Shown one piece after another: positions 47,402 through 53,245 of a stretch of DNA of 64,000 nt. This stretch comes from Paracoccaceae bacterium (lineage in GTDB: Bacteria; Pseudomonadota; Alphaproteobacteria; Rhodobacterales; Rhodobacteraceae), in contig QWDA01000002.1 in the NCBI GenBank assembly GCA_003605175.1, positions 489,643-553,642 of the forward strand, given 5' to 3'. The notes below the pieces were generated by a model, which saw only the letters and a program-made list of their open reading frames with translations, was not told the origin of the DNA and ran no database searches. The position numbers were made by a program, and so were the translations under genes. Positions within the stretch are counted from its first letter, which is position 1. Each line of letters opens with the position of its first letter.

Positions 47402-48808
47402 CTAGGCGGCCTTCGTCCGCCAGCTGTCGGCGGCGTAGCTTTCGCGCGCGAGGCTCGAATACGGTGTCGGCGAGACGCGCACCCGGATCTCGGCCTGGCG
47501 ATGCTTCTCGGTCGAGGTCTTCTGGGTGTCGTCCGGCTCGCCCCATTTCAGCGTCAGCACGTCGCCCACCTCGACCGACTGGTCCACGACGCCGAGCGAC
47601 AGCACGCAGCGTTCGTTGAAGCTGTAGCCGTTGAACATCGACATGCCGACCATGCGGTCGCCCTGCATGATCATGTCGGCAGAGGACGACGCGTAGTTCG
47701 GCTGCGGGAAGTCGATCCACTTGCAGGGCGTGCCCGGCTCGAAGGACGAGGCGATCACCTTGAGAACGTCCTCGGCGTTCCACTCGAAGGTGACCTTCTT
47801 GCGGTTCGTGGTGCTCTCCTTCATCTTCAGGAGCGCCTCCTTGCCGATGAAATCGTCCTTCTTCCAGCCGATGTAGAAGTCGTAGCCGAGCTCGAACGGG
47901 TTCACGTAGTAGTCTTCGATATTGTCCGAGACGAAGCTGCCTCCGATCGCGCCCGCGGCCTCGTACATCTCGGCGCCCAGCCAGTCGCGGTAGTCCTTCA
48001 TCATCCCGTCGCCGGTGTAGATCCCCGGCAGGGGCGAGGGAATCCAGCCCGATTCGAGCGTGTTCGTCGAATAGGCGCGACTGCCGCACTGGACGAGCCG
48101 GACACCCGCGTCGCGGGCCGCCTGCAAGATCGTCGAGTGGATGTAGCTCTTGTCCTCATAGGGCCCCCAGACCTCGAGGCCGGGCGCACCGGACATGCCG
48201 TGGCGCAGCGCCTGAACCTTCTTGGAGCCGATATTGATCCAGTCGACATGGAAGAACTTGATGTCCGGGATCGGCCCGCCGTTCATCTTCTCGAAGATCT
48301 TCGGCGCGTCGGGGCCCTGGATCTGGAAGCGGTAATGGGTGCGCAGCACGCGCTCGCCCTCGGGCCGCGAGGTGGAGCGGGGATCGTGCTTGATCCGGAC
48401 GTTCCACTTGCCCCAGGCGGCGCAGAACATCAGCCAGTTCGAGGTCGGCGCGCGGCCGACAAGGATGAACTTGTCCTCGCGCTCGCGGAAGATGATGTGG
48501 TCGCCGATGACGTGGCCGGCCGGGGTGACGGGCACGTAATGCTTGGCGCGGTTCAGGTCGAAGTTCGAGAAACTGTTGATGCCGTGATGGGCAAGGAACG
48601 CCTCGGCCTGCGGGCCTTCGACGATCAGTTCGTCCATGTGGTGCGACTGGTCGAACAGGACGGCGGTTTCGCGCCAGGCGACCTGCTCGTTGCGCCAGTT
48701 CTCGAATTCCGGCGTCACCACCGGGTAGACATACATCCCGATCTTCGAGTTGCGGAGCATCTCTACAGGGTTCTTGTGCTGCGCCATCACGTCGGAAAGG
48801 CTGGGCAT
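47402..48808 (-). CDS. tetrahydrofolate-dependent O-demethylase, LigM/DesA-like aminomethyltransferase family
   Basis: A 468-residue protein of the GcvT/aminomethyltransferase superfamily. Several segments resemble LigM-type vanillate/syringate O-demethylases: the N-terminal EMLRNSKIGMYVYPVVTPEF, ALRHGMSGAPGLEVWGPYE, RAYSTNTLESGWIPSPLPG, and AIGGSFVSDNIEDYYVNPFE. These enzymes transfer a methyl group from an aryl methyl ether to tetrahydrofolate. It lacks the N-terminal features of DMSP demethylase DmdA. The exact substrate cannot be read. The gene is 12 bp after a GntR/FCD regulator and upstream of a TRAP system, consistent with uptake and demethylation of a methoxylated acid. Confidence 0.8.
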   Translation of the reverse strand: MPSLSDVMAQHKNPVEMLRNSKIGMYVYPVVTPEFENWRNEQVAWRETAVLFDQSHHMDELIVEGPQAEAFLAHHGINSFSNFDLNRAKHYVPVTPAGHVIGDHIIFREREDKFILVGRAPTSNWLMFCAAWGKWNVRIKHDPRSTSRPEGERVLRTHYRFQIQGPDAPKIFEKMNGGPIPDIKFFHVDWINIGSKKVQALRHGMSGAPGLEVWGPYEDKSYIHSTILQAARDAGVRLVQCGSRAYSTNTLESGWIPSPLPGIYTGDGMMKDYRDWLGAEMYEAAGAIGGSFVSDNIEDYYVNPFELGYDFYIGWKKDDFIGKEALLKMKESTTNRKKVTFEWNAEDVLKVIASSFEPGTPCKWIDFPQPNYASSSADMIMQGDRMVGMSMFNGYSFNERCVLSLGVVDQSVEVGDVLTLKWGEPDDTQKTSTEKHRQAEIRVRVSPTPYSSLARESYAADSWRTKAA

Positions 48809-48820
48809 TGGGCGTTCCTC

Positions 48821-49555
48821 CTATTGCGTTTCTTGGGTTACGAGCGACAGGCCGGGCACGCAGCCGGCCAAGCTCGGTTCGGTCTTGGTCAGGTAGTCGA
48901 GATTGTCCCGCGCCTGGCGGGCATGTTCGCGGGCGAGCGCTTCGGCGCGGGCGCCTTCGCGGGCCCGGATCGCGCCGAGCATGCCACGGTGCTGCCGCTG
49001 GGCCTCGACGAGACGAAAGCGGAAATCGGGGATCAGCCCCTGTTCGCGCAGGAACGCGCTGGGCGAGGCGAGCGGAAGGCGGCTCACGCGTTCGACCTCA
49101 CGGCGCACGATGGCGCTGCCGGAGAATCTGGCGAGCAATTCGTGGAACCGGGCGTTGAGACGGACATAGGCATCGAAATCGAAGTCCCCTTCGAGAGCTT
49201 CGTCGATACCGTCCAGCACGGTTTCGGCTTCGGCGAGGAGCACGGGGTCGGCGCCGCGCTCGGCCGCCAGCCGGACGGCGGTGCCCTCGATCACGCCGCG
49301 CATCTCGATCGCGTCGTGGATATCCTCGAGCGCGAAACGCGCCACACGGCAGCCGCCGGTCTCGATCCGCTCGAGCAGGCCCTCGGCCACCAGCCGGTCC
49401 ATCGCCTGCCGGAGCGGCGTGCGTGACAGGCCGAGCCGTTCGGAGAGCGCAACCTCGGGCAGCCTTGTGTTCGCCTCGAACGCGCCGCCCATCACCAGGG
49501 AGCGCAGGCCGAGCACGGCCTTTTCTACCTGGCTGAGACGCGCCGTGTCGCTCAT
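48821..49555 (-). CDS. GntR family regulator with FCD domain (VanR-like subgroup)
   Basis: A 244-residue repressor. The N-terminal winged helix-turn-helix occupies about residues 10-70 (LPEVALSERLGLSRTPLRQAMDRLVAEGLLERIETGG). The C-terminal FCD domain (about 85-225) has the metal-binding histidine and aspartate positions in LNARFHELLARFSG. The regulator and O-demethylase are in one transcript, and two TGTATACA palindromes lie in its promoter region. The start was set at the ATG with GGAGG seven bases upstream. It probably responds to the substrate or product of the adjacent pathway. Confidence 0.9.
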   Translation of the reverse strand: MSDTARLSQVEKAVLGLRSLVMGGAFEANTRLPEVALSERLGLSRTPLRQAMDRLVAEGLLERIETGGCRVARFALEDIHDAIEMRGVIEGTAVRLAAERGADPVLLAEAETVLDGIDEALEGDFDFDAYVRLNARFHELLARFSGSAIVRREVERVSRLPLASPSAFLREQGLIPDFRFRLVEAQRQHRGMLGAIRAREGARAEALAREHARQARDNLDYLTKTEPSLAGCVPGLSLVTQETQ

Positions 49556-49601: not shown

Positions 49602-49630
49602 ACGTTAGAATGTATACAGTTTGCCGTCAA
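49602..49630 (-). promoter_or_regulatory. predicted promoter of the gntR/O-demethylase operon with embedded operator
   Basis: On the minus strand TTGACG (49625-49630) and TAACGT (49602-49607) are 17 bp apart. The palindrome TGTATACA (49611-49618) lies inside the spacer, the classic place for GntR repression. Confidence 0.6.
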
Positions 49631-49662: not shown

Positions 49663-49670
49663 TGTATACA
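49663..49670. promoter_or_regulatory. second predicted GntR operator, facing the DyP operon
   Basis: An identical TGTATACA, centred 52 bp from the first copy (five helical turns) and 86 bp before the start of the divergent operon. Same-face spacing suggests cooperative or looping repression of both directions. Confidence 0.55.
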
Positions 49671-49755: not shown

Positions 49756-50442
49756 ATGTCGAATATTGCCGGCAAGGCCTATGCGATGAATGTCGTGACG
49801 CCGAGCAACCCCAGGATCACCTGGATCAACCGCCTGCTCTTCATGATCGCCCGCGGCCTGCCCGCGAATCTCGCGGGGCTACTGGGTCTGTCGCTGATCC
49901 ACTTCGCGCGCTGGGTGATCATCAAGCGCAAGGATTGGCCGGATCTGGGCCAGGGCAAGCAGAAGCTCCAGAACGACTACGTGCTGTTCTGCTCGAATTT
50001 CAACGGCACCTGGGACCAGTATATCGACGCCTTCTCGGACGGCATTCCGAAGGGGCTAGATCTGTTCTGGTACTCGGCCACGAAATACCCGCACTCGATC
50101 CCGATCACGCCCTTCAAGAACTACATCACCTACAACCAGGTCTTCACCGACTATTACTACAACGCCACCCCCGGCTCGGCGCAGCGCGACATCAAGAGCT
50201 GCACCAAGGTCTACGACGCCGTCCTCGCGCTCGAGACGGCGCATGCGACGCAGTCTCCCGAAGAGTTTGCCAAGACCTGGCGCGAGACGCTGAACGGGAT
50301 CCAGGCCGCGCTCGGCGATCCGGGCTTCGGCCCCGTGGCGAGCCTCGATACCGAGCGCGCCGACCAGAACCGCGAGGATTTCGTGCGAAGGGCGCAGGCC
50401 GGGTTCAACCGGGTCCGCGCGGGAGGCAAGCCCGATGCCTGA
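49756..50442 (+). CDS. DyP-operon protein 1, unknown (dimeric alpha/beta barrel-like)
   Basis: A 228-residue protein. The pattern LIHFARWVIIKRKDW, YVLFCSNFNGTWDQYIDAF, KNYITYNQVFTDYYYNATP recurs in a weaker form in the next gene product (LARMFVLDDVIYNGR, YFVFCAEID, DYYLAPP), so the two are likely distant paralogues with a ferredoxin-like or dimeric alpha/beta fold, the same fold class as DyP peroxidases. Residues about 17-45 are hydrophobic and could contact the membrane. The start was placed at ATG (MSNIAGKAY) with AAGG upstream; the earlier open frame has foreign-looking composition. The stop overlaps the next start by 8 bp. Confidence 0.75.
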   Translation: MSNIAGKAYAMNVVTPSNPRITWINRLLFMIARGLPANLAGLLGLSLIHFARWVIIKRKDWPDLGQGKQKLQNDYVLFCSNFNGTWDQYIDAFSDGIPKGLDLFWYSATKYPHSIPITPFKNYITYNQVFTDYYYNATPGSAQRDIKSCTKVYDAVLALETAHATQSPEEFAKTWRETLNGIQAALGDPGFGPVASLDTERADQNREDFVRRAQAGFNRVRAGGKPDA

Positions 50443-51433
50443 TTTCGATACCGGCCACATCTTCCTCACCACTTTGGCTCCCGTGAAGCGCGGCAGTGCC
50501 GAAGAGGGCGAAGGGATCTCGCACCGGCAGCGGCTGCGGATCGCGCTTTCCGAACTGCCCACCGCGATGCAGTCGCCCGCGACCCAGAAGACGGCAATGA
50601 ACAGCCCCTTCGCGCGCAACCGGCGGACGCATCTGGCACGGATGTTCGTCCTCGACGACGTGATCTACAACGGGCGGGTCGGTACCAACCCGGTGATCGC
50701 CACGCTCCGCGGCATCAACCCCGCTCAGCCGCAGCCGATCGACACGCTGAACGCGGCCTATTTCGTGTTCTGCGCCGAGATCGACGCGGTGGAGGAGGAC
50801 GGCGCCCCCCTGCCCTCCGAGCTCACGCCCGAGGCGCAGACGCGCGTGCGCCGTGCCTATGCCCGCGAGCTGTGGGAGACGATGGGGCCGGAACTGGAGG
50901 ATCTCTACACGAACTGCGAGGGGTTCGAGGGGGTGACGGACGCGCATGGCTTCGCCGACTATCTCGAGCGCTGCCATGTGGAAACGACGATGCCGTTCCA
51001 CGATTATTACCTCGCCCCGCCCGCCTTCAATCTCCTGTCGAAACAGGCGCTTCTGGCGGCAATGGGGATCCCGGCCCTGGTGACATTGCTCGCGCTTCTC
51101 GGCTGGCTCTTTGGATTCCATACCGGCTGGGCCTTCCTCATCGCGCTTGCGGTGACCGCGCTCGCGGTGTTCCTCTCGGCCCGATTCGCCCTAGCAAACG
51201 GTGCGAAGCCCCTGCCGCCCGCGCCGCACGATGCCCTGCCTTCGGTCCTGAAGGCGCTCTATGTGCAGCAGACATTCGCGGACTTCGCCGTCGACAGCCA
51301 GGGCGCCTCGACGGAAGACCTCCACAAGGGCTTCAGCGCCTATCTCGAGAAGCACAAACCGTCGAACCGCGCCGGGCCGACACAGGCGCCCGGCGTCATC
51401 TCGATCAAGGCCGATGGCGGGGTGACACCATGA
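50435..51433 (+). CDS. DyP-operon protein 2, unknown, with membrane hairpin
   Basis: A 332-residue protein. The N-terminal half shares the HLARMFVLDDVIYNG and YFVFC pattern with protein 1. A helical hairpin at about residues 205-250 (ALLAAMGIPALVTLLALLGWLFGF, AFLIALAVTALAVFLSARFAL) anchors it in the membrane. The C-terminal tail (PPAPHDALPSVLKALYVQQTFADF) is soluble. It overlaps protein 1 upstream by 8 bp and the peroxidase downstream by 4 bp. I cannot assign a function; a membrane platform or ligand delivery for the peroxidase is plausible. Confidence 0.75.
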   Translation: MPDFDTGHIFLTTLAPVKRGSAEEGEGISHRQRLRIALSELPTAMQSPATQKTAMNSPFARNRRTHLARMFVLDDVIYNGRVGTNPVIATLRGINPAQPQPIDTLNAAYFVFCAEIDAVEEDGAPLPSELTPEAQTRVRRAYARELWETMGPELEDLYTNCEGFEGVTDAHGFADYLERCHVETTMPFHDYYLAPPAFNLLSKQALLAAMGIPALVTLLALLGWLFGFHTGWAFLIALAVTALAVFLSARFALANGAKPLPPAPHDALPSVLKALYVQQTFADFAVDSQGASTEDLHKGFSAYLEKHKPSNRAGPTQAPGVISIKADGGVTP

Positions 51434-53076
51434 GCTACCGCCTCGAATTGCAGGACATCCAGGGCAATCTCGTCCGCGCCTATGGCCGCTATTCCTACCC
51501 GTTCGCGCGCTATTTCTTCCTCAACATCGCCGCCTTGGAGAAGGGCCGCGCCTTCGTGGGCGAGGTGGCGAAACGGGTGACCACCGCGACGCACTGGCCC
51601 GATAAGGCATCGCAGCCGCAATGCACGTTGAACGTGGGCTTCACCTTCTTCGGGCTCTACCGGCTGGGCCTGCCCATGCGAACCTTGCAGAGCATGCCCG
51701 AGGAATTCATCGCCGGGATGAAGGACCGTGCGTTCCTGCTGGGCGACCGCGACATGACACGCTCCGAGGCCGACGACAGGGATTGGGACAAGCACTGGGA
51801 TCCGATCTGGCAGGGCAACCGGCGCGGCGACGGGTTCGACGCCGACAATGTCCATATCTGGATCTCGATGAATGCCCAGCTCAAGGCCGAGGGCACCGCA
51901 GAGCCGGTGGACGCGCTCGAGGAGATGACGGTCTGGCTGCGCGGGCTCTGCGCGAGCTCGGAGGGGGGCGTGCGGATCCTCGCGACCAACGGGCGGAACG
52001 GCGACCAGGAGTATCACGCCGCCTCGGCGGTGTTCCGCGACCTTGGCGGGATGCTCCTGCCCACGCCGAACGAGCATTTCGGCTTTGCCGACGGGATCGG
52101 CGATCCGGTCTTCAAGGGCCAGTACCCGCCCGAGAAGGAAAAGATCGCGGTGATCGGCCGCGGCAAGCGGATGGGCAATGGCTGGGAGCCGATCGAGGCG
52201 GGCGAGTTCATCCTCGGCCATCCCGACGAGAGCCAGGAGGTGCCACCCACCGCCGTGCCCACCGAATTCATGACCAATGGCAGCTTCATGGCCTACCGGA
52301 AGCTGCACCAGAACGTGACGAGCTTCGCCGAAGTGGTGGGCGGCGAGGCCGAGCGCTACGCCGCGGTCATGGGGATCGAGAAACCCGAGGCCGAGGTCAC
52401 GCTGAAGGCCAAGATGTGCGGGCGCTGGCCCGACGGCATCCCGCTCGCGGTGGCGCCGACCCACGCGGAGTGGAAGGCCGAGCAGGAAAGGCTGGGGCTG
52501 AACGACCCCGACCCGGTGAAGGCGCTGACCGCGCAGATCGCCTATCTGCGCTCGCCCGCGGCCTCGGATTTCCGCTATGCCGACGACATGATGGGACTGC
52601 GCACGCCGGGCGGCGCGCATCTCAGGCGGGCCAATCCGCGCGACTATCTCGACCCATTGAACAAGCCCGATGGCGACAACCCGAACGCCACCACCGCGCT
52701 CAACAAGCGGCGGCGGATCCTCAGGCGCGGCCTGCCCTACGGACCGCCGCCGGGGACGCCGCTCAGCGACGAGTCCGAGCAGGGCGTGACCATGATGATC
52801 GTCGGCGCGAGCCTGTTCCGGCAGTTCGAATTCGTGCAGCAGCAATGGATCGAGTACGGGCTCGATTTCCACCAAGGCAACAACACCTGTCCGATGATCG
52901 GCGGCCATGAGCACCACAAGCGCTTCGCGATCCCGGGCGACGGGGCGAAGGGTTGCCCGGCCTATGTGATGAGCTCGCTGAAAACCTTCGTCGAATGCCG
53001 CGGCGGGGATTACTTCTTCGTGCCCTCGATGACGGGTTTGCGGATGATCGCCATGGGTATCGTCGATCCGACCTGA
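51430..53076 (+). CDS. Dyp-type peroxidase (long form)
   Basis: A 548-residue heme peroxidase. The GxxDG motif is in FGFADGIGDP, with D near residue 222. The proximal heme histidine is in GGAHLRRANPRD, H397. A conserved arginine lies in SLFRQFEFVQQQW near residue 460. The N-terminal segment LELQDIQGNLVRAYGRY is typical of long DyPs. There is no Tat or Sec signal, so the enzyme is cytoplasmic or membrane-associated via its partner. DyPs oxidise phenolics, dyes and lignin fragments with H2O2. The start overlaps the stop of the preceding gene (ATGA). Confidence 0.9.
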   Translation: MSYRLELQDIQGNLVRAYGRYSYPFARYFFLNIAALEKGRAFVGEVAKRVTTATHWPDKASQPQCTLNVGFTFFGLYRLGLPMRTLQSMPEEFIAGMKDRAFLLGDRDMTRSEADDRDWDKHWDPIWQGNRRGDGFDADNVHIWISMNAQLKAEGTAEPVDALEEMTVWLRGLCASSEGGVRILATNGRNGDQEYHAASAVFRDLGGMLLPTPNEHFGFADGIGDPVFKGQYPPEKEKIAVIGRGKRMGNGWEPIEAGEFILGHPDESQEVPPTAVPTEFMTNGSFMAYRKLHQNVTSFAEVVGGEAERYAAVMGIEKPEAEVTLKAKMCGRWPDGIPLAVAPTHAEWKAEQERLGLNDPDPVKALTAQIAYLRSPAASDFRYADDMMGLRTPGGAHLRRANPRDYLDPLNKPDGDNPNATTALNKRRRILRRGLPYGPPPGTPLSDESEQGVTMMIVGASLFRQFEFVQQQWIEYGLDFHQGNNTCPMIGGHEHHKRFAIPGDGAKGCPAYVMSSLKTFVECRGGDYFFVPSMTGLRMIAMGIVDPT

Positions 53077-53169: not shown

Positions 53170-53245
53170 TGGTGCCGGCTGAGGGGCTCGAACCCCCGAC
53201 CCACGGTTTACAAAACCGTTGCTCTACCAGCTGAGCTAAGCCGGC
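53170..53245 (-). tRNA. tRNA-Thr (anticodon TGT), CCA encoded
   Basis: On the minus strand the 76-nt sequence starts GCCGGCT and ends AGCCGGC-A-CCA, giving a 7-bp acceptor stem. The D-arm segment is TAGCTCAGCTGGTAGAG, the anticodon arm is ACGGT-TTTGTAA-ACCGT with TGT in the loop, and the T-arm contains GGTTCGAGCC. All cloverleaf arms fold without mismatch that I can see. It reads ACA codons, and other Thr codons by wobble. Confidence 0.97.

What the first reader, a model, noticed from the sequence alone, without database searches (positions are those of the whole stretch)
49756..53076. Three-gene DyP module with two related partner proteins
The peroxidase is preceded by two uncharacterised genes with start-stop overlaps (8 and 4 bp). 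Both partners share an HxAR...Y(V)xFC...DYYxxP pattern with each other, and the second has a membrane hairpin. This suggests a membrane-docked peroxidase complex built from duplicated dimeric alpha/beta domains, not described to my knowledge.
Basis: partly seen in the sequence, partly recalled or inferred. Interest (0 to 1): 0.7.

Follow-up and report, generated by a model that had tools for sequence, protein, structure and literature searches.

The report
DyP peroxidase with obligate barrel partners
Two small uncharacterised sister proteins are encoded directly in front of a DyP-type heme peroxidase, and wherever we found members of their family they almost always sit beside, or are fused to, such a peroxidase, so the set likely works as one enzyme complex, here predicted to be held at the membrane and possibly acting on oxidised fatty acids, which would mean that such peroxidases have been studied without their partner.

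Summary
The module is real: A (49756-50442), B (50435-51433) and DyP C (51430-53076), overlapping by 8 and 4 bp. A and B are paralogs (profile-profile E 2.2e-16), predicted ferredoxin-like halves of an alpha+beta barrel, without Pfam or NCBIfam family; B carries a predicted membrane hairpin. Linkage to DyP is near-absolute: 23 of 23 partner loci in 299 Pseudomonadota genomes, and 78 of 80 A-B loci in GTDB contigs (the other two contigs end inside B). Single-partner, two-domain and fused forms (P450-partner-DyP in one chain) exist. Relatives add a P450 with Pro at the usual I-helix acid position, a small catalase-family protein or a GST, and some lie in oleate/fatty-acid cassettes; the window copy has none of these. 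The crystallised Deinococcus radiodurans DyP (8re2/8re3), reported inactive at physiological pH, has such a partner gene ending 1 bp upstream. Best reading: a paired barrel docks the DyP and presents a lipid-derived substrate; complex and substrate are inferred. The hairpin occurs only in some relatives, so membrane docking holds for this clade, not for all. Ten literature searches found no description of the partner.

The parts
49756..50442 (+). Gene A, 228 aa, partner protein; predicted single ferredoxin-like domain with a hydrophobic helical stretch after strand 1
   Evidence: no Pfam/NCBIfam family; 4134 homologs
49768..50244 (+). Partner-superfamily core domain of A (profile A7)
50435..51433 (+). 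Gene B, 332 aa, paralog of A with predicted ferredoxin-like domain, membrane hairpin and C-terminal helices
50447..51010 (+). Predicted ferredoxin-like domain of B (residues 5-192)
51041..51199 (+). Predicted membrane hairpin of B (residues 203-255)
50435..50442 (+). 8-bp A/B start-stop overlap
51430..51433 (+). 4-bp B/C start-stop overlap (ATGA)
51430..53076 (+). Gene C, 548 aa DyP-type heme peroxidase, closest solved relative a class V (former C) DyP; no signal peptide seen by eye
52090..52092 (+). Catalytic Asp221 of the GXXDG motif (GFADG)
   Evidence: role from the DyP family
52618..52620 (+). Proximal heme-ligand His397
   Evidence: role from the DyP family
52723..52725 (+). Distal Arg432
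   Evidence: role from the DyP family

Best explanation
A and B are related proteins, each predicted to be half of an alpha+beta barrel, that likely pair with each other and hold the DyP peroxidase C in one complex, here predicted to sit on the inner face of the membrane through B's hairpin, where it would oxidise a lipid-derived substrate such as a fatty-acid hydroperoxide. Shown here: the operon, the A/B homology, the near-absolute linkage of the partner family to DyP, and natural fusions of partner with DyP. Predicted: the fold and the hairpin. Inferred: that A and B pair (single partners would then pair with themselves, and two-domain partners within one chain), that the barrel touches C and opens or feeds its heme site, and that the substrate is lipid. 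In relatives the next step would be done by a P450 without the usual I-helix acid, or by a small catalase-family protein; the window copy keeps only the core.
Confidence: 0.5

Rival explanations
1. A and B are enzymes in their own right (cofactor-free oxygenases or isomerases like ABM, SnoaB or methylmuconolactone methylisomerase) acting in the same pathway as the DyP, without a stable complex.
For: Such enzymes are among the fold neighbours found for B (SnoaB, CTB10, ABM, methylmuconolactone methylisomerase), and A is the most conserved of the three in 59 of 72 loci.
Against: Fusions of partner and DyP in one chain and the strict linkage fit a structural unit better; only a few positions (R, F, G, Y, Q) are invariant or near-invariant across the superfamily alignment.
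Confidence: 0.22
2. The partners load or protect heme in the DyP, as a chaperone-like barrel.
For: Heme-binding barrels are common in this fold (PMC4835899, passages); a hemA gene lies near one relative; purified DrDyP has a blocked low-spin heme.
Against: No His is near-invariant in the superfamily alignment; recombinant DrDyP carries heme (PMC10820274, passages); P450 or catalase-family companions are not explained.
Confidence: 0.15
3. An ordinary peroxide-defence or aromatic-catabolism operon; the partners are accessory and the lipid link is a by-product of mobile cassettes.
For: Granulicella has katG and a Fur-family regulator nearby; the window's upstream neighbours are a GntR/FCD regulator and a GCV_T-domain gene.
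Against: I recognised no recurrent katG, Fur or GCV_T cluster among the 40 most frequent neighbour clusters of the 80 loci, not all of which I identified; ordinary defence does not explain the dedicated partner, the P450 without the usual acid, or oleate hydratase neighbours.
Confidence: 0.13

Closest known systems
DyP-type peroxidases of class V (former class C), above all D. radiodurans DrDyP (PDB 8re2, 8re3)
   Same: C keeps the GXXDG Asp, proximal His and distal Arg; best PDB match is DrDyP (E 8.8e-33); DrDyP itself has a partner gene upstream
   Different: The contexts named for DyPs in the review passages I saw are EfeUOB-type operons, encapsulin cargo and a copper-linked DyP (PMC8197335); a dedicated barrel partner is not mentioned in those passages
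Dimeric alpha/beta (ferredoxin alpha+beta) barrel proteins: ABM, SnoaB, CTB10, EthD, SP1
   Same: Predicted strand-helix-strand-strand-helix core of A and B
   Different: No sequence family match; A carries a hydrophobic helical insert; B has a long insert, a membrane hairpin and C-terminal helices; linkage to DyP
Siroheme decarboxylase type heterodimeric barrels
   Same: A barrel built from two related but different chains is an established arrangement (PMC4835899, passages)
   Different: Heterodimer of A and B not tested; no sequence comparison with siroheme decarboxylase was made
Oxylipin cascades (CYP74 or catalase-related hydroperoxide isomerases after a dioxygenase; recalled, with abstracts in the listing)
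   Same: Works like: a candidate lipid-oxidising enzyme with, in different relatives, a P450 or a catalase-family protein next to it
   Different: DyP instead of lipoxygenase; the P450 and catalase-family proteins are not shown to belong to those families

Membership tests
DyP-type peroxidase | GXXDG motif with catalytic Asp | tested here: met
   GFADG, Asp221; Asp invariant in 14 of 14 aligned DyPs
DyP-type peroxidase | Proximal His and distal Arg | tested here: met
   His397 and Arg432, aligned to solved DyPs and invariant in 14 of 14
DyP-type peroxidase | Curated family score cut-offs | tested here: not met
   TIGR01413 72.4 bits against 100.5; PF21105 22.6 against 27.5; homology itself is clear (E 3.8e-20; PDB E 8.8e-33), so it is filed as a divergent DyP
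DyP-type peroxidase | Peroxidase activity with heme b | not testable with these tools
   needs biochemistry
Dimeric alpha/beta barrel (A and B) | Ferredoxin-like strand-helix-strand-strand-helix core | tested here: inconclusive
Dimeric alpha/beta barrel (A and B) | Two domains pair into one barrel | not testable with these tools
   no complex prediction available; two-domain single-chain partners exist
Dimeric alpha/beta barrel (A and B) | Sequence match to a catalogued barrel family | tested here: inconclusive
   no Pfam or NCBIfam family for A, only below-cut-off hits to unrelated families for B; no profile similarity to the DyP itself for B or the superfamily profile; distant relatives cannot be excluded
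Oxylipin-type hydroperoxide pathway | Hydroperoxide-transforming P450 or catalase-related enzyme encoded with the module | tested here: inconclusive
   P450 or catalase-family ORF at 29 of 37 wider loci but none in the window; substrate of either is unknown
Oxylipin-type hydroperoxide pathway | Lipoxygenase or other fatty-acid dioxygenase | not tested
   no lipoxygenase profile was run

The most novel reading that the evidence does not exclude
Bacterial class V DyPs are not stand-alone peroxidases but the catalytic subunit of a multi-protein lipid-oxidation machine: a paired alpha+beta barrel (A.B) switches on the DyP and feeds it unsaturated fatty acyl chains, and a dedicated P450 or catalase-family enzyme turns the hydroperoxide into an oxylipin-like product, a DyP-based counterpart of the lipoxygenase/cyclooxygenase cascades.
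Probability: 0.28. Interest if true: 0.88.

Novelty: new variant of a known kind. Interest (0 to 1): 0.76.

Why it matters
The natural role of DyPs is called unclear in the DrDyP paper itself, and that enzyme was reported inactive at physiological pH, its authors speculating that interactions with other proteins might govern it (PMC10820274, passages). A partner gene ending 1 bp upstream of that very gene makes the question directly testable: add the partner and measure. The neighbours also suggest which substrates to try (fatty-acid hydroperoxides) instead of dyes.

Full report
What is there. The window holds three tightly packed genes on the plus strand: A (49756-50442, 228 aa), B (50435-51433, 332 aa) and C (51430-53076, 548 aa), overlapping by 8 and 4 bp. 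A and B match no family above a cut-off in Pfam or NCBIfam and nothing in PADLOC. C is a DyP-type peroxidase: TIGR01413 at E 3.8e-20 (below its curated cut-off), best PDB match the D. radiodurans DyP at E 8.8e-33, with the GXXDG Asp221, proximal His397 and distal Arg432 aligned to solved DyPs.

A and B are duplicates. BLASTP shows nothing, but an alignment of 74 A and one of 76 B proteins match each other along their length at probability 98.7, E 2.2e-16. In some relatives B is hit by both the A and B queries (L002, L007, L010). In a maximum-likelihood tree of 46 domains, A and B are each one clade (100/99 and 99/99) and sisters (83/90, not starred; midpoint root).

Linkage to DyP. In 80 GTDB loci of A (the best 80 of 283; mostly Acidobacteriota and Pseudomonadota, one Gemmatimonadota among them), B follows in 80 of 80 and a DyP in 78 of 80; the other two contigs end inside B. 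With A alone as query, 14 of 299 Pseudomonadota genomes match at 15 places, each beside or in frame with a DyP. With a profile of the whole partner superfamily in the 299 genomes there are 23 partner loci in 22 genomes; the profile match is within 506 bp of a strong DyP match, or in the same reading frame, at 23 of 23. Of 27 strong DyP loci (E < 1e-40), 23 have a partner and four do not; eight more genomes have only weak DyP matches and no partner. In 240 Alphaproteobacteria, 7 of 8 partner loci are adjacent or fused and the eighth (G378) is at a contig end; of the 8 strong DyPs there, the one in G378 lies on another contig without a detected partner. In plasmids, 51 records have a match to the single-type partner and 40 were listed; 36 of these 40 also appear among the 60 listed (of 81) DyP records, and in all 36 the two lie within 1.2 kb on one strand; 16 of the 60 DyP rows had no partner row among those listed, an upper bound because 11 partner records were not listed. 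Within the window's family, the A profile matches 12 of 198 genomes (two matches are weak) and not the one same-genus genome sampled, so the module is patchy.

Architectures. Besides A-B-DyP there are single partners before a DyP, two-domain partners (open frames of 435-708 aa), a partner-DyP fusion (L129), P450-partner-DyP fusions (L018, 1470-aa frame; Novosphingobium aromaticivorans, 1443 aa; Sulfitobacter, 1620 aa) and DyP-P450 fusions (L055, L125). In the four two-domain partners where both domains score, the first scores better with the B profile and the second with the A profile. A hairpin is seen in 23 of 24 B proteins of 260 aa or more and in 0 of 56 shorter ones, of which two are cut by contig ends, so membrane attachment is a clade feature.

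Companions. A P450 gene follows, or is fused to, the DyP in 33 of 68 assessable A-B loci (12 of 80 had too little sequence). In 37 P450s aligned, the heme Cys and ExxR are present in all, and Pro replaces the acid of the usual (A/G)GX(D/E)T motif in 36; the exception is not adjacent to a DyP (the motif and its meaning are recalled). A GST-like gene lies downstream in 12 and a small catalase-family gene lies near in 8 of the 80 (GST and catalase by Pfam on examples). In 37 wider loci that I had opened, 19 have a catalase-family ORF, 10 have the P450 instead, and 8 neither by this search (one of the 8, Terrarubrum, has an annotated catalase); one of the 19 (L209) also has a distant P450. Of 17 single-partner plasmid regions I opened (of 51 records), 14 are annotated with a catalase or catalase family protein in the cluster, and 8 have fatty-acid genes such as oleate hydratase, 3-hydroxyacyl-CoA dehydrogenase, thioesterase or acyl-CoA dehydrogenase; some of these cassettes are near copies. 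The window itself has none of these companions by the same queries. In ten loci from nine family relatives, 10 of 10 have A-B-DyP and 7 have the P450 right after the DyP, one has a P450 upstream of A, two have none, so the window is a core-only version.

Deinococcus radiodurans. On NZ_OV024759.1 a 243-aa partner gene ends 1 bp before the DyP, followed by a catalase family protein. That DyP is the crystallised DrDyP: it aligns with 8re3 over 445 residues with two differences, one of them Met to Gly in the GXXDG motif, as in the engineered M190G of the paper. The 2024 paper reports DrDyP inactive at physiological pH with a six-coordinate low-spin heme, and speculates that interactions with other proteins, for instance encapsulin, may govern it; the words operon, gene cluster and partner do not occur in its main text (passages only).

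How it most likely works. DyPs fold two barrel halves in one chain, and barrels of this fold form by homodimers, heterodimers or fused duplicates (PMC4835899, passages). The partner family shows what looks like the same three solutions: single genes, A plus B, and two domains in one chain. The simplest reading is that each system makes one extra barrel, without its own conserved heme ligand, that binds its DyP. By identity to the window, A is the most conserved of the three in 59 of 72 loci (means 54.6% for A, 39.6% for B, 48.5% for C), which argues for a central role. The companions point to lipid hydroperoxides, but this step is inference and rests on relatives. The open cases, DyPs without a detected partner and A-B loci without a P450, are counted above.

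Novelty. My searches of an open-access library found no paper on the partner, on the P450 fusions or on a DyP-lipid pathway of this kind; I saw listings and passages, and subscription papers are mostly not covered. The families of C and of the P450 are known; the partner superfamily and its near-obligate pairing with class V DyPs are what appears to be new.

Noticed in passing
window 49611-49618 and 49663-49670: Two TGTATACA palindromes 52 bp apart lie between a divergent GntR/FCD regulator (48821-49555, minus) and gene A; possible operators, read from the sequence.
   Followed up: no
window 53170-53245: tRNA-Thr (TGT) on the minus strand directly after the DyP, where 7 of 10 family relatives' loci have the P450.
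   Followed up: partly
window 47402-48808: GCV_T-domain protein on the minus strand, demethylase-like by eye, with a TRAP-type binding protein further on by eye; separate divergent genes.
   Followed up: no
L055:7295-10090: Gemmatimonadota DyP fused to a P450 (932 aa; PF21105, PF20628, PF00067).
   Followed up: partly
L129:4905-8531: Partner-DyP fusion (1209-aa frame) with a C-terminal part of about 460 aa that matches no Pfam family.
   Followed up: no
L228: In one family relative the DyP is split into three reading frames; left as found.
   Followed up: no
L232 and L237: One genome (G700) carries two separate A-B-DyP modules.
   Followed up: no
L210: Sinorhizobium chiapasense module with a NIPSNAP-family gene (itself a barrel family, recalled) after the DyP and hemA upstream.
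   Followed up: no
L211: Bradyrhizobium sp. CB82 has two hypothetical genes before its peroxidase, both under partner matches; a possible further partner pair.
   Followed up: no
L135:5478-6491: Streptomyces module has an unassigned 337-aa protein between partner and DyP, no Pfam match.
   Followed up: partly
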